From assembly GCF_019649055.1 (NCBI RefSeq), contig NW_026570291.1:186001-250000 (forward strand): DNA of 64,000 nucleotides. The letters are read 5' to 3'. The notes under the pieces were generated by a model. The model searched no databases. It was not told the DNA's origin and saw only the letters and a list, made by a program, of their open reading frames with translations. How positions within the stretch are numbered: position 1 is the first letter of the stretch; the number at the start of each line of letters is the position of its first letter. Position numbers and translations under genes: made by a program. Positions 24,801-57,404 of this stretch are shown here, in pieces. Origin of the DNA: Paramacrobiotus metropolitanus. Its lineage: Eukaryota > Tardigrada > Eutardigrada > Parachela > Macrobiotidae.

Positions 24801-27800
24801 AAAAAACTACTTAGAGAAATTCATTGGGTGCGAACACAAATGCTGGGGCGTTTTCAAACCAGTCACATCAAGTAGGCATTTCGACAATTCAAGCACGAAT
24901 TACCATTTTGCACTAACGAAACTTCCGCTTGAAGGTTAGAAACTTCCGCTTTTAATTAGACTTTTCAGAACTTTGATCAGACTTTACCTTATGGTTGAAA
25001 GGAAAACACCTTTGCGCTGTTCGAAATGAATCTGACTTGCTTTTTGAAGTATACAGCGAGATATATAGTCAAAAGATAGATCGTAATGAACGTACAATTT
25101 ATGATTATTAGATGGTGCGAAAAAGATTTGTTATGCGGCTGTTATTTTGAATGTTGTTGCAATAAATCATAACAAATGGTTGGCGTGGATTCCAAATTCA
25201 TAAGTATCTGGGTTAGTGTTGGAGCGTCAGCCAGAGCCGTTCGGCGTCTCGCTGAGAACGCGTTACTTTAATTCAGTCGTTAAGGTTAAGATGTTCGAAA
25301 TGTCACCTTGAGTATACTACATTGTCCACATTTCTTTATGACTAAAGTGGTATACTACTGCGCGCACTCGTAGAGGCGTGCCAGGTATTTCATACATTTT
25401 CTTTAACAAAAACCAGCTTGCGCATTTTACACGACACCACAGCCATTATGCACCGGTCTTTGTTTGGATGAGCTGAAACATCACAAACCAATTATTATCC
25501 TTAGTACGTGAGACATATCTCTTAACTCGGACACGGTATGATTTTACTATCCACAACCAACGACACCCTCAGCGCCGTCATTCCGCTTTCCGCGCACATG
25601 CGTCGTGAAGAGTTGTGTAAACCCTGCCTGTTATTACAGAGCATCGCTTACGCTCGGCCAACAGTCGCACAGGCGACACCCGCGATTACACCACAACCAC
25701 CATGTCCCAGAGTCATTCACCCGATCTACTGCGGCGTGCCGCTCCCTCGCCCAAATCCATCCTGAAGAATCCCAGTCTGCACCGGCCCCGGAAGACCAGC
25801 GCCTCGGAAGATCGGATTGGCGCGGAGATCAACGGCCATGATAGTGAACGGGAACGCGAGCACAGTCTGATTCGCCGCGCCCGCGCCACGACGCCCAGTT
25901 TCCCGGTGAGCTCGTCGTTGGAGCGCAGCGGCAGTGTGGGACAGCGGGGAGGCAGTCGCAGTGGATCGTTGCAGCGGGCCGGTTACAGTGTGTACGGGAC
26001 GAGGGAGAGGGCGACCAGCAGTGGACGGTCCACACCAACAGGTACAGTTTTGAGCTATAATCAAATGGAAATGAACCAATACATATTGCGCCATTTAATG
26101 TCACTACTTCGTAGTTAAACTTTTCCTGGTAATTTTTGTTTTGTTTTTTTGGTAATGTAAGAGTACCGAAATTGATGTGAGGCTTAAGATTACCGATAAT
26201 TGGCGATAAAAGATATTGTTGTTCTTATTTCTGCTCTTCCGGAAGTAATCACATTCGTGCTTTATTGATGAATGGTTTTATGTTATCGTTTTTATACTTG
26301 TGAAATGCTAAATTTTGTTATACCACTAATAAGAGTACTGCTCATTTGAGTGGGTCAGTTCAGCACGAAGTACATTTCGTGGTAGCTTTATTTATTTCGT
26401 TGAGATAGTCGCTGTAATTCTGTAACATATAAAATTTTAAACCGTATGATAATTTCTGTTGCTTTTCGGTAGGTTATTTTGGTTTGAGCGGTAGTCGACG
26501 CTCCAGCCTGACATCGATCAACAACAGCAATCTAAATAACGACGCTGACGAATTCGTCATCCACCAGCATCCAGTCTTCGTGCGTGACCTGTCGAAATTT
26601 TGGTACAAACCCGGCATCACCCGTGAAGAGGCCATTGAGATTCTCAAAGACAAACAAGCGGGCAGTTTCCTGATTCGCGACAGCCATTCCTATCCCGGTT
26701 CCTACGGGATGGCTGTCAAGGTGGATCCGGGACAGGTGCCCGGTGCAGCCGGTGGACGGAGTCCACCGGAGGAGCTGGTGCGGCATTTCCTGGTGGAGCC
26801 GACACCCAAAGGAGTCCATTTGAAGGGCTGTCAGAATGAACCGGTGTTTGGCAGTTTGCCGGCGCTGGTGTATCAGCACTCGGTGACACCCTTAGCGCTG
26901 CCGTGCAAATTATTGCTGCCTAGTGCAGATTTGACGCTGCAACATCAGCCGCTGTATTCGGAGGATAACCTGCAGAGATTAATGGAGCAAGGCGCCGGTA
27001 AGATATTTGTTAAAAGCATTGAAACTGCGTCGCTGATTATCTGTACGCAACAGAAAGAATGTTAAGCATTTGAATACTTTCTTTGTCACATCACAGAAAG
27101 CAGAATACGTGCTGGAAGCGGACGTTAAAAACTGAATCACAGTGTTTATCAGTAAATTTATTTTTTTAATTTGACTTCTAGCGCTTACCAGTGTATTTTG
27201 CTTGCAGCATGCAACGTTTCCTACTTGGTAACTGTGGATACGGAATCTCTGACTGGACCACAGGCCGTTCGTCGGGGAATGGACGTGGTCAGCCAGGGCG
27301 GCGGTTTCGGTACCCGGCCACCCGTCGTTCACATTAAAGTCAATGCCCAAGGCATTCTCCTGACGGATGTCGGACGAAAGTAAGTTGTCTTTTAGTGCAT
27401 TACATGGAGCTTTGTTCAGCGTGGCAATTTTCTCTACAGAGTATTTTTCCGACGATATTATCCGATCCAGAATATCTCCTACTGTGGCATTGATCCTGAT
27501 GATCGCCGGTGGAAATCTGACAATACCAGTTTATCTAGTGCACGGTAAGAAATTGCAGCTGCTTTCAGTGAAAAAATCTATAGAAAATCGTTGGGAAAAA
27601 ATCCTGAAAATAAATTAATTAAGCAAGAGTTTACCTTTGAAATTTTTTTAATTTTACCTTTGAAATCTTGCAGGTGTTTCGGATTTGTTAACCGCAAGCA
27701 GGGCTCTCGCAACCAGAACGAATGCCATGTATTCGCCGAACTGGATCCGGAGCAGCCGGCGGCGGCGGTCGTGTCCTTTGTTAATAAGGTCATGATGACC

Positions 27801-31389: not shown

Positions 31390-31410
31390 CGGCCCCGCGC
31401 AGCGGGGCCG
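31390..31410. repeat. Perfect GC-rich hairpin
   Basis: A 9-bp inverted repeat CGGCCCCGC, loop GCA, GCGGGGCCG stands out in AT-rich surroundings about 90 bases before the TTAA-flanked element. Its role is unknown. Confidence 0.8.
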
Positions 31411-34847: not shown

Positions 34848-37800
34848 TCATCCATGAGTTAAATCCTTGATCATCTTGTACAGCCTCTTCGCATCCAGCA
34901 ACATGACCACGCGAATGGGTACCAGTTTCTTCCCGCGCATCCTCTGGGAAATGTAGTTCCTGTCGCCACCCACAGGGAAAACATAACTAGCTTGGGCATT
35001 CTAAAAAAGCGGCACAACACTGAAACAAAAAAATACTAACGCTACGGACTTTTACATGGCCAGTTTACCTTATACCACAATTCCTCCAGGTCATTGGCGA
35101 ATACCGCATCGCGCATTGAGCGTCCGACTGGTAAATGGGCTTTGGCAATCACCAAATGCCGATCAACAGCGAAAGGCTTCGATTCCGAAACGGCTTTGTC
35201 AATGTTGTCTCTAGGTGAAAACAGCAACTTATTAAAGCACAACAAATAGCAGAACGTCTACCTCTGAATCCATTAATATTATTCAACTGCAATAACAAAC
35301 ACCTTGATAAGGAAAACTCCATCAGTTTACTGGAAACAATAAATCAAATTAATCCCGGTTTAACTTGTAAGTTAAACTTAATCATCTATCTGATTTATTT
35401 CATCAGTTACAGTATTGACACACATATTCTAAACTTACAGTAAAATAAACGCAAGCACGGCACGGATGGCATAACTCATGATTTCGAAAAAGAAGCAATA
35501 AAGTACTCATACATACTTTACATCTTCGAACAAAGCCGACGACAAGACCGGCGGTGTATTGACCAGCTCGCAGATCATCCAGCCAATCTTCCCCAATTTT
35601 CCCTCGAACAAATCCGCAAATTTCGCCCGGCTTTCCATCACCTCCGTTCCCCATCCGTACTTCTCCTCCAACATGGCCATCAAGCTCTGAACGCAGGCTT
35701 TCTCATGGTGCTCCGTCAAATTAATCATGGTTGCCAACGAGAACGGCTTCGCTTCAAAGTCATCCGGCTCCTCACTCCAGTAACTTCCCCGGCTCTCCAC
35801 TGTGATATGGTGCTTGTAATAACCGTCCGCACTGCCATAGTATCGTGCCGTCGTCACACCATCCTCTCCCCACACGAAACCCGCCATTTCCTTCCAGTCC
35901 ACCGGAGAGTTGGGCAGCAGTCGCTGAAAGATACTCACCACGATGTCACTGTCGGCAACGCTCAATGATCGTTCCTCAAACTGCGGCACGTTAGTCAGAT
36001 GGGCTGGCAGCTCCGGGACAGTGATATTACCATAGATGTTTTCCGATACAGCAGCGAACCGTTCGGGATCTTCCTCGCGCACTGCCACCTCACTGCAATA
36101 CTGCATTTTTAAAGGTCATCATTATAAATTTAACATACTTTACCTTTTCAGTAGTCGAATGTCGTCTTCGATGTTGTTCAGCTGCTCGCGCACGGTTTTC
36201 ACCATCGTGCTGTCCGAACCGTACACTTTGGCATAGATACGCGAGGATTCCTGCAGAAAGTCCAGGGCTGTGGGGAGAACATCTTCGAAATGAGATAAGA
36301 AGCGCGCACGATCATTCGGAGAAACAAGCATTGATTCGATGGTGAACCACGCATGACAGTGGATGCCCGCATTTTGCAGATGCTGCGCACGTTGAAGGTG
36401 GTATTCGGGAAAAACGGTTCTGCAAAATCAAACACCTGCAGTTAAGAAATGGCAATTATTGCGAGATCCACATTCAAGGATAACCGGTGCAAGAAGTAAT
36501 GCGATTCTGTATTTCAAGCTTTCTAAAAAGTGCAACGTAGGTTAACCCGTATAACATGTAAACATGTAATCGCTACAACTTTCAAACACTTTTTTACCGC
36601 ACGCATGGGACCAATGCAGCATACAGTTCCCAGGCCTCCGGGAATCGTTTCTGTTGAGTGTATTGATCAGCAGCATCCCATCCGTACACGTAGCGAAGAT
36701 GCGCTTCCGGATGTACCAAACCCGAATCATCCAGTTCTTTCAACAGGCGGATCCGTAACGGTAACGCTTCATGGAAATTGTCATTTTTTGCTGCTAAATG
36801 CTCAGTGAACACCTTTTCCTGCTTTCGTGACAAACGCCGGAATGCCTGCAACTGCTGGCCGTTGATCGCACCGCACTGTGAGCAGGGATTCAGCGCGCGC
36901 TCATCACTGGGAATACGCTCCGCGCAGCCAGTGGTCGAGCACTTCAGTGGATTGATGTCCGCATCCTGTAAGACCAACACCTCAAAGTTAACAACATTTT
37001 AACATTTGTGAAGAGAACAGCAAAGTCATTACTATCGACATGTCCAGCAATTTAGCGCTTAATAACGGCAATCTGATTGGGTTCATTTATTACTAAATGG
37101 CCAAAAATTTAGTGGGGAATTAGTAAAACCCTTACGTATTCACTGCTGCACTTCCGGCATTCGCATGATTTGTTAAAATGTTTGCGGAACAAATCTTGTC
37201 GCTGTTTCGCTGTACGTCCAAGTGGTCGACGAATGTGACCATACGAACGACACTAAATTAAGTATCATGAATAGTGCGTTATAATTACAGTATATCATAT
37301 TTTGTCATCTCTAACAGAGAACGTCAAAAAATTATCCGAAGTCAAAATAAGATTGCAACATGTTTTACGCAGTGTATACTTATTAAATCTCCTGTCTATA
37401 AACAGACAATTTAATAAACTTCAACCCATTCTGCTTTAAATAAACAAAATATACAAAATTTTCCGAAACGGAAAAAAGACTATTCAAACGCTGCTCTTAG
37501 CTTGCTTACATCCTGTAATCCTCTGTACTCGGGAATGTCGTCGATGGCCATTATCTTGATGAACCGTCCGTGGAAGGTCAGCGTCACATTGCTGTCGGAG
37601 CAAACCGGCGTCAGCTGGCGATGGTTGACGGTGGGGAAGATGCCGGCGCCGAACGGAAAAGGGTACGCAGCTTCGAAACTGTTCATGGCGGCAGAACTGT
37701 AAAACACTTTCTGATGGTAATCCCGCATCTCTTTCACAGATACGAGCATGCTCTCCACCGGCACTCCCAGACATTCGGCCATGAGGGCGTGAAGGGTTTT

Positions 37801-38989
37801 GTACAACCCCAGATCACTGCAAAAACAATGCTCCAGAAAGGTCAATGCTCACACAATACAAACGATATCAGTTTCCACACACAGCGCTTTAACGCGACAA
37901 TTACACGTCTGGGATACACTACGGCGTGTGTATAACAAAATTTTAAAATCAAAAAAATAACTGCACATTTAAAAGAGAAAACGGCAACTGTTATGACCAG
38001 TTAGTCGAATCAGTAGTTGCACTATAAAGCATAAGAGGTTTCGCAACACTTACGATTTCTTCGTTTTGCCGAATTCGGACTTGTATGGAAGGGCGTCCAG
38101 AATCTCTATGGTGGTTTTCTTGGTTCCTGCGCCAGGCAGATGATCGTCCGCTTTCCGCTAGGGCAAATACGACATGCGATTAGATTTTTCAAAAAATGTT
38201 CTGATTTTAAATCGCACGAATTTCACTGTCACATGTACAAATTATTGAGCGCCAGAAAACATACGTAGAATCTCTACGAGTGCAGTAGTTAAAGTTTTCT
38301 ACTGGTACCTGGATTTTATTCAGTATTTTCAGCAGAATAATTTCATTCGTCCAGATGCCAAGATCCTGCCCACTAGCGGGACACACGTTCTTTAGGTCAC
38401 TGATCCGTGCGCCGCTGAATCGTTCTCGGAGTCGCTTCAGCATGTCACATTCCAGATTGTGCTCCTTCTTCCAGCTATCTTTCTGCAAATGGTCACATCG
38501 CTATAAGTCGTATAAAACTGAACCTGACAATTAACTGTAGAAAATGTAAGGAACAGTACGGGATTTAAAATAATTTTTATAGTGGTTACTGCAGCAGTAC
38601 CGAAGCGAAATACTATACATAAGCGGCTAAGCCTAGACTTCTTCGCTGTAATTTTGTGTGCATCTTATGTAAGCAGAACCAGTTTTAATCTGCATGCACG
38701 CGGTAAACGGACAATAATATCTCGTACCTATGTTCCCATTAGCAGTTACGTAACAAAACCAAATACTTGCTCCAGTACTTACCAGGCATTTCGCGCCGCA
38801 GTAGTAGTAAAGTTTACATTTGGAACACGTCGCCAACAAATGGTCGGAAAATTTGAAACAGTGCGCGCAGAGCATCTGGTGCTTGTCCCAGTGGAAAGAC
38901 CAAACCCAGGCTTCGCTCTGCGCCACAATCTCCCCCGCGGCAATGGGTCGCGGCGCGGCGACCGATGGAACAACTTGAGGCATATCCAT
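34848..38989 (-). CDS. SMYD-like SET/MYND protein A, SET degenerate, with long C-terminal extension
   Basis: Ten minus-strand exons: 38989-38783, 38482-38309, 38157-38054, 37816-37510, 37252-37136, 36965-36598, 36419-36144, 36092-35517, 35210-35069 and 35000-34848; all joins are in phase, 807 residues. A complete MYND zinc finger spans residues 41-81 (Cys 41, 44, 55, 58, 64, 68, His 77, Cys 81). A SET-like core follows, with V-N-H at 225-227 and H-G-R-F-I-K-I-M-A-I-D-D-I, then a post-SET C-E-C-R-K-C at 294-299. Residues about 304-518 match the helical C-terminal domain of SMYD proteins. The G-x-G strand that binds S-adenosylmethionine is missing and N-H-S-C-x-P-N has become N-H-R-Q-L-T-P, so methyltransferase activity is doubtful. 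Residues about 519-807 form an extension I do not recognise. It is a tandem paralogue of the gene at 41469-46133. Confidence 0.9.
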
Positions 38990-39375: not shown

Positions 39376-40623
39376 TTACACAGCAACATCTACAACCACA
39401 GGAGGGCGAATAACAGAAAAGATCTCGTCTAAATTCGCCGTCGGTGGTGCTGTTCCCATGATAGATGCTGCGTTTCCTCGCTGAATTTCGATGCTGATAC
39501 GTTGACGCAAGAACTCAAGTGCTCGTGGTTCGCCTGACTGCTGCTGTATCATCTTCCCTAGCACGGTAAGCAGCCCTGTGGTTTCTGGTCCGAATGTTCC
39601 GTAGGTCTCGAAAGCCAGAGGCTTGAACCAGTAATCCTGGGTGATGTTGCGGTATTTCTCGGTCTTGCTCCGCTCGGCTAGCGCTGCTGCAGCTCCGGCT
39701 CGAGTGGATGTGGCTGCAATGTACGACAAGGCCATGGTGCTCCGGCAGGTTACATCCCATGCCAGCGCCTTTCCTCTTTCCCACGGGGAAATTGTCACTC
39801 CGTCTGGTCGTTTGCCATCTGTACGGGAGATTCCAGGAGGTTCCAGTTCAGTTTCGATTCCAGCTGACGCAAAGGCGCGCTTTATGACCGCTTTGAGACT
39901 TTCATGGGTCGGTTTCCGCCCGGCACTGAACTTGCAACTTGAGCCATGGTAGCCATGCTCATCCGCTTGGTCGCCGCAAATGCACTGGTGTGGTGTGCAT
40001 ACCGGTGCACCCAGGCGCAGCGCCACAGCTGTCCTTAGGCCGGAGTCGTTAAGTAAGTTTCCAAGGGATGCTGCCGGTAGTGCTTGGAGCCATGCGCCCG
40101 CCTCTTTGGTGCTGACTGCCAACATCCGCGCCTGGCTAGCGATATCGTTTTCAAAAGCCCTCTCCAACAGTCTCAAATCTGATCTTATGATAGGTTCGTC
40201 CCACGCTTTCTGCACTCCCCGAACTCCAGGTGGCGGCGCATCTTGATTCGTCAACTGCTGCCATAAGGTGGTTGGTTCACTACAATACGTCTCCGGCTGG
40301 TAGTTCGTAATTGCGGAGGCCAAGGGAGCAACTGAATAAGCCGAGGCCAGAAAGGCCGGCAGTGCTAGCTTAACAATACTCCTAATGCCTAAACCGCCTC
40401 TTGATACCGGAAGTGACGCCTGTGTCCAGATTACGTCGGTGATGGCAGTGTTGGTTATTCTGGACAGGCTATCACGTATCATGGTGTCGAAATCATTCAG
40501 CAAGGGTTCCTGCAAGTAACACCTGCCAGTACGCAATTTGTAAAGCAGCCTTACCGGTCCCATACTGCATCGAAGTAGATACAGTGCCTGGTGGGCTGGT
40601 ATGATCTGCAGACGTTCAGTCAT
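39376..40623 (-). mobile_element. Retroelement polyprotein, 3' fragment (415 codons)
   Basis: An uninterrupted minus-strand frame resembles the region after the reverse transcriptase in retroelement polyproteins widespread in invertebrate genomes. Landmarks are S-R-G-G-L-G-I-R; a zinc-binding block C-I-C-G-D then H-G-Y-H-G-S-S-C (near residue 220); an endonuclease-like block D-G-K-R-P-D-G-V then A-W-D-V-T-C (about residues 265-290); and the tail I-Q-R-G-N-A-A-S. The reverse transcriptase itself is absent, so the copy is 5'-truncated at about 40640. The element type (non-LTR or other) cannot be settled from the tail alone. It lies between the two SMYD-like genes, on their strand, and is not part of either. 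Confidence 0.78.
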
Positions 40624-40874
40624 GCGGGCGACTACCTCCGTTGCACTGACGAGTACGTGTTTGTATGTGCAAAGTGCATTGCCCTTTAATTAGAATAATA
40701 ATAATATTATTTTAACTGTTTAACGCAAAAAATACTGCATTACGTACACACTGAGAGTTGTACAAATACAATGGTATAAAGTATATCTATATAATACTTT
40801 TCAATATTCAAATTTTAATTTTTAGTAATACGTCTATCAATTAAACAAATGAAAAACAGGAGCATCACACAGCA

Positions 40875-41468: not shown

Positions 41469-44400
41469 CTACGAGCCTTCCCCAAATACCAAATCCTGGA
41501 TCATCTTGTACAGCCTCTTCGCATCCAGCAGCATGACCACGCGAACAGGCACCAGTTTCTTCCCGCGCATCTCCTGGTCAATGTAGCTCCGGGGGCTGCC
41601 CACAGGAAAAAAATAACTGGCTTGAGCATTCTGCAATGTTAAAAAAAAGCTGAAACTTACGACTACGTCAAACCTCAAAATGATGATTAGTCTACCAGTT
41701 ACCTTATACCACAATTCTTCCAGCTTATTGGCAAAAACCGCATCACGCATCGAGCGTCCGGCTGGTAAATGGGCTTTGGCAATCATCAAATGCCGATCAA
41801 CAGCGAATGGTTTCGATTTCGCAACGGCTTCATCAATATTGTCCCTATGTGAAATTTAAATCACTGCATAAAAAAACAGAATTTTCACTGACAATAATTG
41901 TTAATATTAACTGCAGTGCCCATATCCTTTAAATGGAAATATCGTACCAAGCCAACCGAAAATTTTTTTCGATGCACAAGAAAATGAAATGTCCTGCAGT
42001 TCTTTGGCGTATTTATGGAATAAAATATTTAAAAAAGTTCTGCAAGCAACGTAATACAAGTACGGCAAAAAGGTACCAAATAACTACTGATTCGTACTGT
42101 CAGTACTTACGATTTGTACGAGTAGAGATTTGTAAGTGAAAAATTGCAATTAACGCAGACATACTTTACATCTTCATACAGTGCCGACGACAAATGTGGC
42201 GGTGAATTGATCAATTCGCAGATCATCCAGCCAACCGTCCCCAATTTTCCCTCGAACAAATCCGCAAACTTGGCTCGACTCTCCATCACTTCCGATCCCC
42301 ATCCGTATTTCTCTTCCAACATGGTCATTAAGCTCTGAACGCAGGCTTTCTCCTTGTGCTCGGTTAAATTAATCATGGTAGCCAACGAGAACGGCTTCGC
42401 TTCCCAATCATCACGCTCCTCATTCCAGTATTTCCCTCGATCCTGCACTTTGGCACGGTGCTCGTAGTAACCGTCCGCACTGCCATAGTATCGTGCCGTC
42501 GTTACGCCATCCTCTCCCCACACGAAACCCGCCATCTCCTGCCAGTCCACTGGAGAGTTGGGCAACAATCGCTGAAAGATACCCACCACGATGTCGCTGT
42601 CGGCCGCGGTCAAGGACCGCTCCTCATACTGCGGGCGGTTAGCGAGATGGGGTGGTAGTTCCGGGACAGTGAAATTTCCGTAAACTGTCTCCGATACCGC
42701 AGCAAATCGTTCGGGATCTTCCTCCCGCACTGCCATTTCGCTATAACGCAGCAACACAATTTTGAAATGTAAATCAGGATAAATTACATACTGCCCCGGA
42801 GTTTTACCTTTTAAGCAGTCGGATATCATCTTCGATGTTGGTCAGTTGTTCCCGCACTGTCTGAGCCATCTTGCTGTCAGGTCCATATACTTTAAAATAG
42901 ATACGCGATGATTCCTGCAGGAAGTCCAGTGCGGTGGGGAGAATGCCCGTGAAACTGAACAAGAAGCGCGCTCGATCGTTCGGTGGAACGAGCATGGATT
43001 CGATTGTAAACCACTCATGACAGTGTATGCCGGCATTCTGCAGATGTTGAGCACGTTGAAGGTGGTATTCGGGAAACACGGTTCTGCAAAAATCAGACAC
43101 TTACATTTTAAGAAGCAAAATTATTGCTAAACTCAACCAACGACGAAGGTTACCAAAACTGAAACTGCGCAACTAACGGAACTCCAAATAAAACTTAGAG
43201 TACTTCTATCTTTAATTCTTGCGTCACACAAGGAATTTTATGCTTATTATTTTCGGCAACCCTTTTCGCTGCATGCTCAAAGTCTGAAGACAGCAGTCGA
43301 AATTCTCTAATTGTCTTACCGGACGCATGGGACCAATGCAGCATACAAATCCCAGGCCTCCGGGAATTTTTTCTGCTGATTGTATTGATCAGCGGCATCC
43401 CATCCGTACACGTAACGAAGATGCGCTTCTGGATGTACCAAACCCGAGTCATCCAATTCCTTCAACAGGTGAATTCGTAACGGTAACGCTTCTCTGAAAT
43501 TGTCGTCATTTTTCGCTAATTTATCGGATAGCATTCTTTCCTGCTTTTGCGACAGACGGCGAAATGCCTGCAGCTGCGGGCCATTGATCGCACCGCACTG
43601 GGAACAGGGATTCAGAGCGCGCTCGTCACTGGGAATACGCTCCGTGCAGCCAGAGGTCGAACACTTCAGTGGATTGATTTCCGCATCCTGAAAGACAAAC
43701 GCATTACGGTTAACAATAATACATTTTTCGTGAAGAGAACGACAAACCATTACTACCGAAATGCACTGCATTTAGCGGACAGCCTGATAAAGTCATTTAC
43801 GTTGCAAAACCTCGGTGTCAAATTAAACTCTAACATATTCACTGCTGCACTTCCGGCATTCGCACAATTTGTGGAAGTGCTTGCGGAACTGATCTTGTCG
43901 CTGCTTTGCAGTACGTCCCAGTGGCCGACGAATGTGTCCATACCAGCGGCACTATAAAATACAAAACGGTCACCAGCTGACATGCAGTGCTGTTATTCAA
44001 ACTTGAGAACAGATTTGCAGTCATGTTTCATTTCCGCGTCTTTCTGGATAATTCAGAAAAATATTCACAGTTATCCACTGTTATTGCTACTCCAATTTAT
44101 TACCAAGATACTAAACCAATGCATTTGATTAAATTAAACGCATTCAGTTTTACAACTAAGTACCTGTGCAGTGCAACGTGTGAAGTTCATTACAGATTAC
44201 AAATATATATACGTAGATTACTGTATGTTAATTTTTTGCATGCACAAAATAGTCATGGACTCCCGGCCGGTCTCAAAAACCTGTTTAATACAGTACAGAT
44301 ATAAATATCATGTTATTCATGTACAGTACCTAAATGCGCACTTACGGTTAGCAGGCGTGATGCTGTTTCTAGTCATGTGTAATTGTACGGGTAACACAAT

Positions 44401-46133
44401 GCATTCAATTCATGCAGTAATTTTGCGCATACCATATTAATTAATATGCAGCAGCACCACAGTTTATGGTTATTTACGATTAATGTTATATTGTACTCGT
44501 ACTTATATACTCTTACGCTCATATACTCGTATAAATATTACACGAAAACGACTATTAAAATGCTTACATCCTGTAATCCTCTGTACTCGTGAATGTCGTC
44601 GATGGCCATTATCTTGATGCTTCGCCCGTGGAAGGTCACCGTCACATTACTGTCCGAGCAGACCGGCGTCAGTTGACGGTAGTTGACGGTGGGGAAGATG
44701 CCCGCGCCAAACGGCAAGGGATAGGCCGCTTCAAAATTGTTCATAATGGCAGCATTGTAGCCGATTTTCCAGTACAGATCCAACATTTCCCTGACAGACA
44801 GGACCATACTCTCCACCGGCACTCCCAGGCATTCTGCCATGAAAGCATGCAGGCCTCGAAACAATCCTGGATTCCTGTAGCCAATACGAGTGTGTAACAT
44901 TAACACGACTATATTATACAGTCTATTACACTGTACCAACAATCCGTATGTCAAAAATATGTATTCAATAATCCTGCATCTGAAAACGTTAACACGCACT
45001 TGCGAATTATTTTTGCTTTAAATATTAAAATAAATAAAAACTATACTGCACTGAACAGGTAAATACCATAATATTTTAGTTAACAGCTACAAATCGAAAA
45101 AGTTTTCTAAAACTCAGAAAACGATTACTTGTATGAAAGAAATACCGATCAAAACAAAGCTAGTGTTCCTTACCAGTTGGCGGAACGGAACAACAAGTCA
45201 TAGAATGCACTATAATCACTTACGGTTTCGTCATTTTGCCGTATTCAGCGCTATAAGGAAGACCTTCTAAAATCTGCACGGCGGTTTTCTTTATTCCCTC
45301 ACCGGGCAAAATATCGTCGATATTCCGCTATATAAATTCAAAACAAATTATAGAAATTTACATACATAATATTTAATCACCTGAACAGCGGAATCTTGCA
45401 TTTACAATAATTTTTAAAGCGAGCGCCAGGGAAGAAGACGAAACGACACTACAGCAGTATTGCTGCATTAGGTGGAATTTACCTGAATTTTATTCAGTAT
45501 TTTCAACAGAATCGTTTCGTTCGTCCAGAAACCCAGATCATGCCCGTTAGCGGGAGAAACTTTTTTCAGATCATCAAGTCGTGCACCACTGAACTTTTCT
45601 TTGAGCCGCTTAAGCACATCGCACTCCATCTTGTGTTCTTTCTTCCAATTTGCTTTCTGTAAGCGGTTCAAAATTTAGAATCGCTACTCGTATAGAATCG
45701 TAAATCTGAGCCTAATGATTTTGAAACTGTAATAAACAATACGGGTTAGAACTTAGGAATACGGGTTAGAACTTAGGGAGCAGACAACAACTTTGCATCA
45801 GCACTCACACCAAAGCAGTACTGTACTGTACTGCTTTAAAAACCGTCACTTTAAAAAATGCAGCAATAATTTCAAATACTACTCAGCAATCTGCAATCAC
45901 CAACAAAATCTATCCCTTACCTGGCACTTAGCATCGCAGTAACTGTACAATCGGCACTGGGAGCACACCAACAAATGATCGGCAAATTTGAAGCAGTGCG
46001 CGCAGAGCATCTGGTGCTTGTCCCAGTGGAAAGACCAAACCCAGGCTTCGCTCTGCGCCACAATATCCCCCGCTGCAATGGATCGCGGCGCGGAGGCCGC
46101 GGGGGCACTTTGAGGCAAGGACCCGGGAGCCAT
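41469..46133 (-). CDS. SMYD-like SET/MYND protein B, tandem paralogue of protein A
   Basis: Ten minus-strand exons: 46133-45921, 45656-45483, 45327-45224, 44874-44568, 43951-43835, 43687-43320, 43083-42808, 42740-42165, 41844-41703 and 41630-41469; 812 residues. Exons 2-9 have exactly the same lengths and phases as in SMYD-A. The MYND finger is complete (C-A-H-C, C-S-Q-C, C-D-A-K-C, then E-H and E-C). The SET-like core is further decayed: V-N-H of protein A is V-N-Y here, and the G-x-G strand is again absent. The post-SET C-E-C-R-K-C, the SMYD helical domain and the roughly 290-residue extension are all kept. The Met at 46133 matches the start of protein A. An in-frame Met at 46259 would add 42 residues beginning with a hydrophobic stretch; see findings. 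The most likely role is a MYND-mediated protein-interaction or transcription cofactor; this is inference. Confidence 0.9.
45738..45777. repeat. Perfect 20-bp tandem duplication
   Basis: AATACGGGTTAGAACTTAGG occurs twice head to tail within intron 1 of SMYD-B. It has no counterpart that I saw in SMYD-A, so it arose after the gene duplication. Confidence 0.85.
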
Positions 46134-54309: not shown

Positions 54310-55530
54310 GATGCCGTATTGTGATCAAGTCAATCTGTAAAAGCGTAAACGAGGATTAACGGGATTAATGACCGGAAGTCTGGGGGACGATGGGTTCCTG
54401 TGGGGTAAAAGTGTCAAGTAGTCTTAAGAAAGAGGGTCAACACCTTGCTCCCCCACTCAGAAACTAATTCGGCCTTAACAGCCACAAGACGTTTGACATA
54501 CATATAAACGCACAGATTGCCCAATTATCACGTTACACTGTCAGAATGGGATATATGAGGTTGTAAACCAACCGCTGCGACCAAATTTCTACCATCAAAG
54601 GCCGCTGACAATCAGAGAAACGTCGAATTTTCCGATAGAAAAACCATAAATATATCTTCAACGAAACGGCACAGGCAAATATCCTGTTATTACTAATTCG
54701 CCTAACCTTGTATGTCAATTTTCAGTTCTGACCGGCACGCGCACGAAACCGTATCGATCAACTGGCAAATATCACATTACAAATATATTCGGCATTTCGG
54801 GAACAATATTGTGCTTTGAATGAGTCAGACCCGGGTTCCGAAGCTTATCGATTCGGCAGAAGGTAATAAAGTAGGTAAACTATGGAAAAGTAAGTATTCC
54901 CCGCGTCACAACAACCATCCAAAGTGCAGTAACACTAGCCAGTCGTATGAATATCCCAGACAAACACAACCATCAAGCGTCAACGTGTGTGTGTGCAGTG
55001 TGCACATCAGTGTTTGTCCATTCCACTTTCGGCCCCGGCAATCATTCCAGGGATCGAAAATGGGATTAAAGCCTAATATTCAGTGCATTAACTCCACTGA
55101 CCGACCGCGCTACTCGCCCATACATTAAGCAAACAGGAAAAATCGATAGTGCCCGATCATCCAGCTTCCCACACATACTAGCCTATTATCGTCCCCGACC
55201 CTGTCCTGTACAGTGTACACAAAACCGTAGAACACTCATCCCAAAATGTCGCCAAGGGGTGGGCACATTTGCATCACTGTGTACTTCAGAATTGGCATCG
55301 TCGAGTGCGGCGGAGATAGTGAAGAGAGAAAAGAGCGGTGCTGGGGAAAATTAAGCTCCATGAGCTGAAAAACTGACAAGGCGATCATCGTCAAGAGAGT
55401 CGGCTACGCTATGTGTGTAGCGGATCATGTTTGAGATGGAGATCGCTGCTGGCCATTGCAAACCATGCAGTGCAGCCCCACTATCACCACCGACGATGCA
55501 CCAGCATCACGTAACGAACTGCAAATTCAG
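54310..55530. promoter_or_regulatory. Receptor upstream region
   Basis: Sequence upstream of the receptor start on the minus strand, up to the 5' truncation of the retroelement. It should include the receptor promoter and any leader exons. A 102-codon plus-strand open frame at 54820-55128 has low-complexity, UTR-like content and no recognisable domain. Confidence 0.4.
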
Positions 55531-57404
55531 AGCCCTCATACGGCTCCGTGCGTAAGGACGTTCTTTTAGCGGCGTTACGCAGATATAACGTCCCTGAATA
55601 TTTGATCAGTTACATTAATAATTATTACACGGGATTGGCGATTAAAGTCTATCATAACGATACGTTTTCTGAGCGTATCCCTTTCAATGTCGGACTGTTC
55701 CAGGGTGATACTATGAGTTGTTCGCTGTACCTTATTGCATCTAATTGTGTAATTGAGTTTCTGGAAGAAAATCAAAAACGTGGAATTGCGTTTGATAGCG
55801 TTCCAGAGAAAAAAATAGTTTCTCTCGCATTCGCCGATGATTTGACGCTTGTTACTAACAATAAAGCCAGCATGAAGAGACTGCTACGTGAAGTAAATAT
55901 GCGTATGAAGTCCATCGGGTTGCATTTAAATGCCGGCAAATGCCGCTGTTTTTCACTTTCTAAGGGAATTTCGTCTGATACTGCTTTTGAAATTAATGGG
56001 GAGAGCATTTCAAATATCTCTAACGATCCTATGAAATTTCTGGGTGTTCATATTTTTAATAAAAATCAATCGGTTAACAGTGGAAGTTTAATTTTTTCGA
56101 GCCTGGATGCATTGTTAAAGAAAGTTGACCATCTCAACTTGCGCAGCGTTTTTAAAGTACGAATTTACAATGAATACGTTATGTCATGCATGCGATTTGT
56201 CTTGACAATGCACGATCTTAGCTTATCTACGGTTAACTCGCTCGAAGCACTTGTTAATAAATATCTGAAAAAATGGTTAAATTTGACTGTTTCTGCTAAT
56301 TGTGATTTCTTTTACGTGAACGAGGGATTAAACCTAAAGTCGGTAAAATCTGTGTATCTGCAAGCACATGCAGCTTTCATCGCTGATGCAATATGCTCTG
56401 CAGATGTTGTTGTTGCAGTAATGGCTGGGAGGGTGTTAGCGCAGCTTGTGCTAATGATTCTGTTGTTGTGGACATTGTGCAGTCCACGGTCGAAGCCGGC
56501 AGGCAATCGGGGTCTAATAAATCGGCAATTAAGAGGCTGGTGAATAAGAAAGTGAGGCAACATGTGTCCGCTTCTAAAGAAAACCGCATCGACTCATTAA
56601 TTCAGCAGGGAGCGTGGCGGGAAATCGCAAAGGCACAGATAGTTGATGCTCCTTGGAAATCCGTTTTGTATGATCTTTCTGAGAACATCGTTTCCTTTAT
56701 GATCGAATCGGCTCTAAATATTTCTCCCTCTTTTACCAATTTGCTAAAGTGGGGACAGATTGTGTCAGCCAAGTGTGATTTGTGTGGGGCCGATAAAGGA
56801 TCTCTGTGTCACATAATTAATAGCTGTCCGGTATCGCTTAATAGCCACAGATACACTTGGCGGCATAACAGCGTCTTACAAGCTATCTTTCTCTCTTTGA
56901 CCGGTGTGGCTGATAAAACTAAATGGGAAGTTCTATGTGATCTCAATCCTAACAGCTATGAGACTCATGTTAGTACTGTCCCTGTTGATGTCTTCCTACT
57001 TCCCTTTCTCCTGACTTGTGTTGCATTAACCGCCGGGAGAAGCGTCTTATTTTAGCGGAGCTGACCATTCCCTTTGAGACCGTACAGGGATTCGCCAATG
57101 CCGAGGCACGGAAACACACGCGTTACACCCCGCTGGTACAACAACTAACCGGCGCCGGCTGGCAGGCGGACTACTACCATCTCGCAATAGGTTCAAGGGA
57201 ATGGTCGCACGTGACGCCATGATCAGTATGGACAAAATAGCCAACACCATCCGGCCGGTTACCGCCTTACCGCAATCGAAGTCGCTGTTTAAAAACTTAA
57301 TGACTATTGCTGTGTCTTGCTCATATGTTATCTTTTTAAATAAATCTAACAAGGACTGGACAGTACCAGGCCCAAGTAATTTGTTCAATGTTCATGCACG
57401 CTAG
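55530..57404 (+). mobile_element. Decayed non-LTR retroelement, 5'-truncated
   Basis: A plus-strand reverse transcriptase is entered mid-domain: S-V-R-K-D-V-L at about 55541, so catalytic block A is lost. Then come F-Q-G-D-T-M-S, the catalytic A-F-A-D-D-L-T (near 55829) and L-H-L-N-A-G-K-C. Similarity continues in other frames: a second open frame (about 56400-57055) carries a C-x2-C-x8-H-x4-C finger at about 56776-56830, a third (about 57030-57210) has L-A-E-L-T-I-P-F-E, and a fourth begins I-G-S-R-G-M-V-A-R-D near 57190. At least three frameshifts mean no full-length protein is made. The finger after the reverse transcriptase and the C-terminal E-L-T-x-P-F-E and G-S-R-G motifs resemble R2/NeSL-type elements with a C-terminal restriction-like endonuclease; the clade is inferred. 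Confidence 0.8.

What the first reader, a model, noticed from the sequence alone, without database searches (positions are those of the whole stretch)
34848..36092. Unrecognised conserved C-terminal region of about 290 residues on SMYD-like proteins
Seen: in both SMYD-like genes the reading frame continues for three exons (576, 142 and 153/162 bases) past the helical domain where known SMYD proteins end. The two copies are very similar, with shared strings such as R-E-E-D-P-E-R-F-A-A-V-S-E, F-V-W-G-E-D-G-V-T-T-A-R-Y-Y-G-S-A-D-G-Y-Y and L-L-D-A-K-R-L-Y-K-M-I. Known: SMYD1-3 are about 430-490 residues and end with the helical domain. Inference: a lineage-specific fused domain under purifying selection.
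Basis: partly seen in the sequence, partly recalled or inferred. Interest (0 to 1): 0.75.

Follow-up and report, generated by a model that had tools for sequence, protein, structure and literature searches.

The report
SMYD-like protein fused to BCCIP chaperone
The 'unrecognised' tail on two neighbouring animal genes is a known domain, BCCIP (a factor that guards a ribosomal protein before ribosome assembly), here joined to a SMYD-like protein whose methylating centre looks broken; this combination was not in the papers searched, and in yeast the BCCIP counterpart works beside a separate methylating enzyme.

Summary
In both minus-strand genes (A 34848-38989, 807 aa; B 41469-46133, 812 aa) three in-frame exons (576, 142, 153/162 nt) follow the SMYD-like part; the region is 84% identical between A and B, dN/dS 0.18 (95% 0.12-0.27). 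It is not unrecognised: it is a BCCIP domain (Pfam PF13862, E 2e-13 for A's tail, 6e-14 in B; human BCCIP structures match at E 7e-8 with an A+B profile). The genome (very probably the tardigrade Paramacrobiotus metropolitanus) also has a stand-alone BCCIP gene with two introns at the same places and phases, so the fusion took in a genomic BCCIP copy, once, before A and B duplicated. The SMYD half belongs to an expanded family (77 places detected). The SET core was found in 23 of 24 inspected paralogs; none has NHSCxPN, and 22 of 23 read C-x-D-x-N. It is probably not an active methyltransferase. Yeast Bcp1 (BCCIP) forms a published sandwich with uL14 and the SET methyltransferase Rkm1. I infer, at moderate odds, a one-chain holdase/scaffold for the same clients. 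Expression, binding and occurrence in other animals are untested.

The parts
34848..35000 (-). Gene A exon 10 (153 nt with stop): C-terminal end of the BCCIP domain
   Evidence: Splice model; aligned to the C-terminal part of human BCCIP 7kyq
35069..35210 (-). Gene A exon 9 (142 nt): BCCIP domain; same length and phase as exon 2 of the stand-alone BCCIP gene
35517..36092 (-). Gene A exon 8 (576 nt): linker of about 39 residues, then the BCCIP domain
   Evidence: PF13862 hit at residues 628-737, exons 8-9; dN/dS
36093..36143 (-). Gene A intron 7 (51 nt, GT-AG), the fusion junction; if retained, the protein ends at once as ...LLKR-stop
36144..38989 (-). Gene A SMYD-like part (exons 1-7: 38783-38989, 38309-38482, 38054-38157, 37510-37816, 37136-37252, 36598-36965, 36144-36419): MYND finger, degenerate SET core, helical/TPR-like region
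   Evidence: PF01753, SMYD3 match, core motif
41469..42740 (-). Gene B exons 8-10 (42165-42740, 41703-41844, 41469-41630): linker and BCCIP domain
   Evidence: PF13862 E 6e-14; model
42741..42807 (-). Gene B intron 7 (67 nt, GT-AG), fusion junction; retention also gives ...LLKR-stop
42808..46133 (-). Gene B SMYD-like part (exons 1-7: 45921-46133, 45483-45656, 45224-45327, 44568-44874, 43835-43951, 43320-43687, 42808-43083)
   Evidence: PF01753; model

Best explanation
Genes A and B encode a SMYD-derived protein with a BCCIP domain fused to its C-terminus. SHOWN: the BCCIP identity, the in-frame junction shared by both copies, purifying selection, a stand-alone BCCIP gene elsewhere with the same internal introns, and the loss of the canonical NHSCxPN motif in the SET core. 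INFERRED STEPS (odds are my judgement): (1) a genomic copy of BCCIP landed behind one member of a SMYD-like family, and a short intron joined them in frame (about 0.9); (2) the pair then duplicated in tandem (about 0.95); (3) the SET half no longer transfers methyl groups but keeps a binding/scaffold role (about 0.75); (4) the protein acts as a one-chain holdase or scaffold for the clients of BCCIP in 60S assembly, uL14 (RPL23) and/or eIF6, in the manner of the yeast sandwich SET-protein Rkm1 / uL14 / Bcp1 (about 0.4).
For: Pfam BCCIP 50.9 bits (cut-off 27) for A's tail, 52.7 in B. PDB: human BCCIP E 4e-5 with A's tail alone, 7e-8 with an A+B profile aligned to chain residues 50-248 of 256. 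Three BCCIP genes were found in the genome: A, B and C62. The stand-alone gene has a 142-nt middle exon and the same two intron positions and phases. dN/dS is below 1 in tail, core and linker. SET core: TPVCSDSN in A and B where SMYD3 has NHSCDPN; 0 of 24 paralog loci hold the canonical motif; of 38 PF00856 hits none lies within 12.5 kb of the 77 family places. In yeast, Bcp1 and the SET methyltransferase Rkm1 sandwich uL14; the Rkm1 residues crosslinked to Bcp1 (K302, K334) lie in its C-terminal helical part, behind a SET domain at residues 1-288, and a catalytically dead Rkm1 still binds uL14 (PMC11248248: passages and section 8 read). The fusion keeps that order: SET, helical part, BCCIP. 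The genome's uL14 keeps two lysines spaced as K106/K110 (KGEMK; yeast numbering from the paper, placement in the yeast sequence recalled).
Against: Rkm1 is not a SMYD protein (no Rubis-subs-bind match in A; that Rkm1 is of that class is recalled), so the parallel with yeast is one of arrangement, not descent. The fused BCCIP has diverged much more than the stand-alone copy (51 against 149 bits), mostly in its first 76 alignment columns (12 of 64 identical to C62, against 55 of 128 in the middle), and it lacks the acidic N-terminal stretch that human BCCIP needs for the nucleolus (7 of 39 acidic residues in the linker against 17 of 44 in the stand-alone N-terminus; PMC7736804 passages). With a stand-alone BCCIP present, the fusion need not keep the ancestral job. 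B has an in-frame Met at the start of exon 8 (residue 522) and A an in-frame ATG inside intron 7, so separate starts are not strictly excluded. No expression, binding or localisation data.
Confidence: 0.45

Rival explanations
1. The BCCIP half was recruited as a general interaction module or decoy and has left ribosome assembly; the fusion serves the unknown role of the expanded SMYD-like family, with BCCIP adding new partners (for example cell-cycle or DNA-repair partners, or a lure).
For: Strong divergence from the stand-alone BCCIP (33% identity), loss of the acidic N-terminus, presence of a stand-alone gene with a strong Pfam match, membership in a family of at least 77 places.
Against: The middle of the BCCIP domain stays conserved (55 of 128 identical to the stand-alone copy) and under purifying selection (0.131, 95% 0.053-0.281 over residues 628-737).
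Confidence: 0.3
2. The helical/TPR-like SMYD part couples the BCCIP domain to HSP90 or another general chaperone, so that the fusion is a co-chaperone for BCCIP clients and the SET core is only a spacer.
For: A TPR-like stretch at 402-449 (PF13424, E 0.0017, below the curated cut-off). SMYD1-3 binding to HSP90 is recalled, not from a call.
Against: No test of HSP90 binding; the similar altered core in 22 of 23 paralogs suggests that the SET core has a role of its own.
Confidence: 0.15
3. Two genes, not one: a SMYD-like gene ending at LLKR-stop and a separate BCCIP-like gene starting 51-67 nt downstream, perhaps as an operon.
For: Reading through exon 7 gives a stop at once in both copies, and in A an in-frame ATG lies in intron 7 just before exon 8; in B exon 8 itself has an in-frame Met at residue 522. 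A stop there is expected anyway from a GTAA donor in this phase.
Against: A clean GT-AG intron in the same phase in both copies; the possible start codons are at different places in A and B; past the splice acceptor A's first in-frame Met is residue 587, inside the BCCIP domain; the linker is under purifying selection in this frame, though a start just before it in A would explain that too.
Confidence: 0.06
4. The SMYD half is an active lysine methyltransferase that methylates uL14, fused to its chaperone (a covalent Rkm1-Bcp1).
For: The yeast arrangement (PMC11248248); both methyl-acceptor lysines appear conserved in uL14 here.
Against: No SET match in A at E up to 10 or in B at E up to 1; NHSCxPN absent from A, B and the 23 paralogs in which the core was found. 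A has 11 residues before its first residue aligned to SMYD3, whose chain has 19 there; the SAM-binding GxG motif of that stretch is recalled, and a missed upstream exon is not excluded.
Confidence: 0.05

Closest known systems
BCCIP / Bcp1 family (PF13862), human BCCIP-beta 7kyq, yeast Bcp1
   Same: Sequence family above cut-off, including the beta-type C-terminal end; intron layout shared with the genome's stand-alone BCCIP
   Different: Fused behind a SMYD-like protein; no acidic N-terminal stretch; first third strongly diverged
SMYD proteins (SMYD3/SMYD2; arthropod SmydA; SMYD4)
   Same: MYND finger; best PDB matches are SMYD3 and SMYD2, mainly over residues 12-93, with a weak match of the SET region (11.3 bits); Cys-rich stretch and helical part after the core (seen by eye in the sequence)
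   Different: SET core without NHSCxPN, no Pfam SET match, C-terminal BCCIP domain; class within SMYD not determined
Yeast Rkm1-uL14-Bcp1 ternary complex (PMC11248248)
   Same: A SET protein with a C-terminal helical domain works next to a BCCIP-family protein
   Different: Separate proteins, joined only through uL14; Rkm1 is an active methyltransferase of a different SET class (class recalled)

Membership tests
BCCIP (PF13862) | Match to the family profile above the curated cut-off | tested here: met
   50.9 bits for A's tail, 48.2 for whole A, 52.7 for whole B; cut-off 27
BCCIP (PF13862) | Middle and C-terminal parts of the BCCIP-beta domain | tested here: met
   A+B profile positions 67-250 of 258 align to 7kyq residues 50-248 of 256, E 6.8e-8
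BCCIP (PF13862) | N-terminal third of the domain | tested here: inconclusive
   Not aligned by the A+B profile; 2.9 bits with A alone; aligned (3-252 to 2-250) only when the stand-alone gene is in the profile
BCCIP (PF13862) | Acidic N-terminal stretch (nucleolar targeting in human BCCIP) | tested here: not met
   7 of 39 acidic residues in A's linker, 17 of 44 in the stand-alone protein. Not part of the Pfam match, so it lowers 'works as BCCIP does', not domain membership
BCCIP (PF13862) | GNAT-like fold | tested here: inconclusive
   AlphaFold2 on exon 8 of A and B gave mean pLDDT 43.8, unusable
BCCIP (PF13862) | Binds uL14 / eIF6 | not testable with these tools
   needs a pull-down
SMYD | MYND zinc finger | tested here: met
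   PF01753 E 1.4e-6 (A), 5.3e-9 (B)
SMYD | SET domain with NHSCxPN motif | tested here: not met
   No PF00856 match in A (E up to 10) or B (E up to 1); TPVCSDSN aligned to NHSC-DPN. Hence filed as SMYD-derived, not as a SMYD methyltransferase
SMYD | C-terminal helical TPR-like domain | tested here: inconclusive
   PF13424 E 0.0017, 18.9 bits, below cut-off 30.1; no TPR family listed for B at E up to 1
SMYD | Lysine methyltransferase activity | not testable with these tools
   needs an assay
Rkm1 / SETD6 | Rubis-subs-bind (PF09273) C-terminal domain (recalled as typical of the class) | tested here: not met
   Not among matches of A at E up to 10. A genome-wide search for PF09273 found nothing but rang in no control either, so it says nothing about Rkm1 in this genome

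The most novel reading that the evidence does not exclude
The fusion is a covalent, single-chain version of the yeast SET-protein/uL14/Bcp1 sandwich: a catalytically dead SMYD clamps one face of nascent uL14 (or eIF6) and the tethered BCCIP domain shields the other, giving a permanent ribosomal-protein holdase that does not depend on methylation for release. In an animal that dries out and restarts translation it could store ribosomal-protein clients.
Probability: 0.25. Interest if true: 0.85.

Novelty: new variant of a known kind. Interest (0 to 1): 0.58.

Why it matters
Domain fusions often mark proteins that work together (recalled principle). A SET-protein/BCCIP fusion in an animal points, independently of yeast, to the SET-protein/Bcp1 partnership on uL14. 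In the passage seen, human BCCIP is said to stabilise nuclear uL14; I saw no animal counterpart of the Rkm1 role, and did not search for one in the literature. The fusion gives a direct test: do these proteins bind uL14 or eIF6? It also flags a large family of SMYD-like genes with an altered SET core in what is very probably a tardigrade.

Tried and rejected
Unknown domain: rejected by Pfam and PDB matches. Viral origin: the BCCIP alignment found no relative in viral contigs (70 pattern matches, none confirmed). Structure prediction of exon 8 (two sequences): mean pLDDT 43.8, so no fold search was run. Genome-wide search for an Rkm1/SETD6-type domain: nothing found, controls silent, uninformative. 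Retrocopy origin of the fused BCCIP: rejected, the internal introns are shared with the stand-alone gene. My first stand-alone model (308 aa, typed) used acceptor 2031 of L009; acceptor 1977 gives a 290-aa model that aligns without the 18-residue insert and puts the second intron exactly where the fusion has it. Identities to A and B do not change between the two models (81 of 241 and 80 of 244), and the Pfam match (residues 35-212) lies before the affected exon. Stop codon turned into the splice donor: the stop after LLKR is what a phase-2 intron with a GTAA donor gives anyway, so I do not count it as evidence. Tree of exon 6 (26 rows: A, B and 24 paralogs): A and B sit together on one side of a branch (99/100, length 0.75); 5 of 23 inner branches are well supported, too few to say which SMYD-like lineage was the recipient. 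Papers: BCCIP + SMYD gave 6 papers, of which I saw the listing with titles and starts of abstracts, none about a fusion; tardigrade + SMYD 0; tardigrade + MYND 0; BCCIP + 'domain fusion' 0; BCCIP + tardigrade 0. The library is open-licence PMC only.

Full report
WHAT WAS CHECKED. The two genes were rebuilt from splice sites. Gene A runs 38989 to 34848 on the minus strand (10 coding exons, 807 aa); gene B runs 46133 to 41469 (10 exons, 812 aa). Exon phases are the same and all 9 introns of each are GT-AG. The tail (residues 518-807) is 83.8% identical between the copies. Nei-Gojobori dN/dS is 0.178 (bootstrap 95% 0.118-0.274) for the tail, 0.152 (0.113-0.199) for the rest, 0.136 (0.036-0.344) for the 39-residue linker, and 0.324 (0.112-0.923) for the last 50 residues, the weakest part. 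Selection therefore acts on the tail as protein, in the frame that continues from the SMYD-like part.

WHAT THE TAIL IS. A Pfam scan names it BCCIP, PF13862: 50.9 bits against a cut-off of 27 for A's tail (48.2 in the whole protein, residues 628-737), and 52.7 bits for B. Against solved structures, A's tail alone matches human BCCIP (8eqb, E 4.1e-5; 7kyq, 1.9e-4). A profile of A and B only reaches E 6.8e-8 and aligns to residues 50-248 of the 256-residue human chain. With the genome's stand-alone copy added, the profile spans 2-250 at E 1e-27; that figure leans on the added copy. The first third (residues about 556-627) is strongly diverged; FEERSLS lines up with human FEAYSLS and the following stretch in the right order, but at 2.9 bits, not significant alone.

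WHERE IT CAME FROM. The genome holds three BCCIP places by protein search and by Pfam search: A, B and one on contig C62 (weak matches can be missed there). The C62 gene is a stand-alone BCCIP with an acidic N-terminus (148.6 bits for a 308-aa first model; 290 aa in the better model). Its first intron and 142-nt middle exon match the fused tails in place, length and phase, and with acceptor 1977 of L009 the second intron does too (phases 2 and 0 in A, B and C62). So the fused domain came from a genomic BCCIP copy with its introns, not from a processed transcript. A and B sit together in the exon-6 tree (99/100, 26 rows) and share the junction intron (51 and 67 nt; alignment z 5.5 against 30 shuffles), so one fusion most likely preceded one tandem duplication.

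THE SMYD HALF. It has a MYND finger (PF01753) and SMYD3/SMYD2 as best PDB matches by sequence (E 1e-9, mainly residues 12-93; the SET region matches at 11.3 bits only), but no Pfam SET match. Where SMYD3 reads NHSC-DPN, A and B read TPVCSDSN: the N-H pair is gone, C, D and N remain, and there is one residue more between them (A also has an N-H a few residues earlier, which B has not). The family is large: exon 6 finds 77 places at E 2.1e-21 or better, A and B included, with 83 of 391 candidates scored, so a lower bound. I looked at 24 paralog loci: four chosen (L010-L013) and 20 drawn at random from the other 71. The SET core was found in 23 of 24 (not in L021; L010, L012 and L013 were in the search model). 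22 of 23 read C-x-D-x-N; L011 reads C-M-N-F-N. NH[SA]C.[PA]N occurs in none of the 24 loci in open frames of 20 or more residues on either strand. Of 38 PF00856 matches in the genome at E up to 0.001, none lies within 12.5 kb of a family place (nearest 12,583 bases). The SMYD half is thus best called SMYD-derived with a probably inactive SET core. None of the other 75 places came up in the BCCIP searches.

ONE GENE OR TWO. Reading through exon 7 meets a stop at once in both copies; A has an in-frame ATG inside intron 7 and B an in-frame Met at residue 522, at the start of exon 8. Against two genes: the GT-AG intron and its phase are shared by both copies; the possible starts are not shared; after splicing A's first in-frame Met is residue 587, inside BCCIP; and the linker is under purifying selection. 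Retention of intron 7 would make a SMYD-only product, which could be real. Transcript data would settle it.

HOW IT MAY WORK. In yeast, Bcp1 is the chaperone of uL14. Bcp1, uL14 and the SET methyltransferase Rkm1 form a roughly 1:1:1 complex with uL14 sandwiched between the two; Bcp1 and Rkm1 do not co-elute without uL14; the crosslinks from Bcp1 go to Rkm1 K302 and K334, which lie beyond the SET domain (1-288); and a dead Rkm1 (Y273F) still holds uL14 and is not released by Bcp1 (PMC11248248; outline, passages and section 8 seen). Human BCCIP binds eIF6 and co-precipitates RPL23, and its acidic N-terminus is needed for the nucleolus (PMC7736804, passages). BCCIP-beta has a fold like GCN5-related acetyltransferases without their catalytic residues (PMC10075960, passages). 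The fusion has the order SET, helical part, BCCIP. I therefore think a one-chain holdase or scaffold for uL14 and/or eIF6 is the likeliest function, at about 0.4. Against it: Rkm1 is a different SET class; the fused BCCIP is much diverged and lacks the acidic stretch; a normal BCCIP gene is present. The uL14 gene here keeps two lysines at the right spacing (KGEMK), which is compatible but proves nothing.

WHICH ANIMAL. The assembly has 169,799,020 bases in 533 contigs and contig C1 is 4,484,719 long. Paramacrobiotus sp. TYO is published as 170,483,395 bases in 684 scaffolds, longest 4,484,941, GC 43.46% (PMC8277472, passages); the window's GC is 42.7%. The contig counts differ (533 against 684) and C1 is 222 bases shorter; I did not find out why. 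I infer this tardigrade; that sp. TYO is P. metropolitanus is recalled.

NOVELTY. Both domains are known. Their fusion was not found in the papers searched (open-licence PMC full text only). Of two papers on SMYD evolution I saw passages only: the words 'BCCIP' and 'tardigrade' do not occur in the text of PMC4521844, nor 'tardigrad' in PMC5459927. I rate it a new variant of a known kind.

Noticed in passing
G000, 77 exon-6 places, many in clusters on C51, C86, C129, C16, C59, C263; L010-L013, L018-L037: Large expansion of SMYD-like genes; in 23 of 24 loci inspected a SET core was found, in no case with NHSCxPN (22 with C-x-D-x-N, L011 with C-M-N-F-N), a shared replacement that suggests a conserved non-catalytic role.
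   Followed up: partly
window 39379-40689 (-) and 55515-56540 (+): Long open frames of likely retroelement origin: 55515-56540 matches reverse transcriptase RVT_1 (E 1.6e-15); 39379-40689, between genes A and B, has no Pfam match at E up to 0.01 but reads like the C-terminal part of a LINE-type protein (my impression).
   Followed up: partly
window 26433-27062 (+): Open frame with an SH2 domain (PF00017, E 1.2e-11).
   Followed up: no
window 31390-31410: Perfect G+C-rich inverted repeat (CGGCCCCGC..GCGGGGCCG) in A+T-rich DNA outside genes A and B, seen by eye.
   Followed up: no
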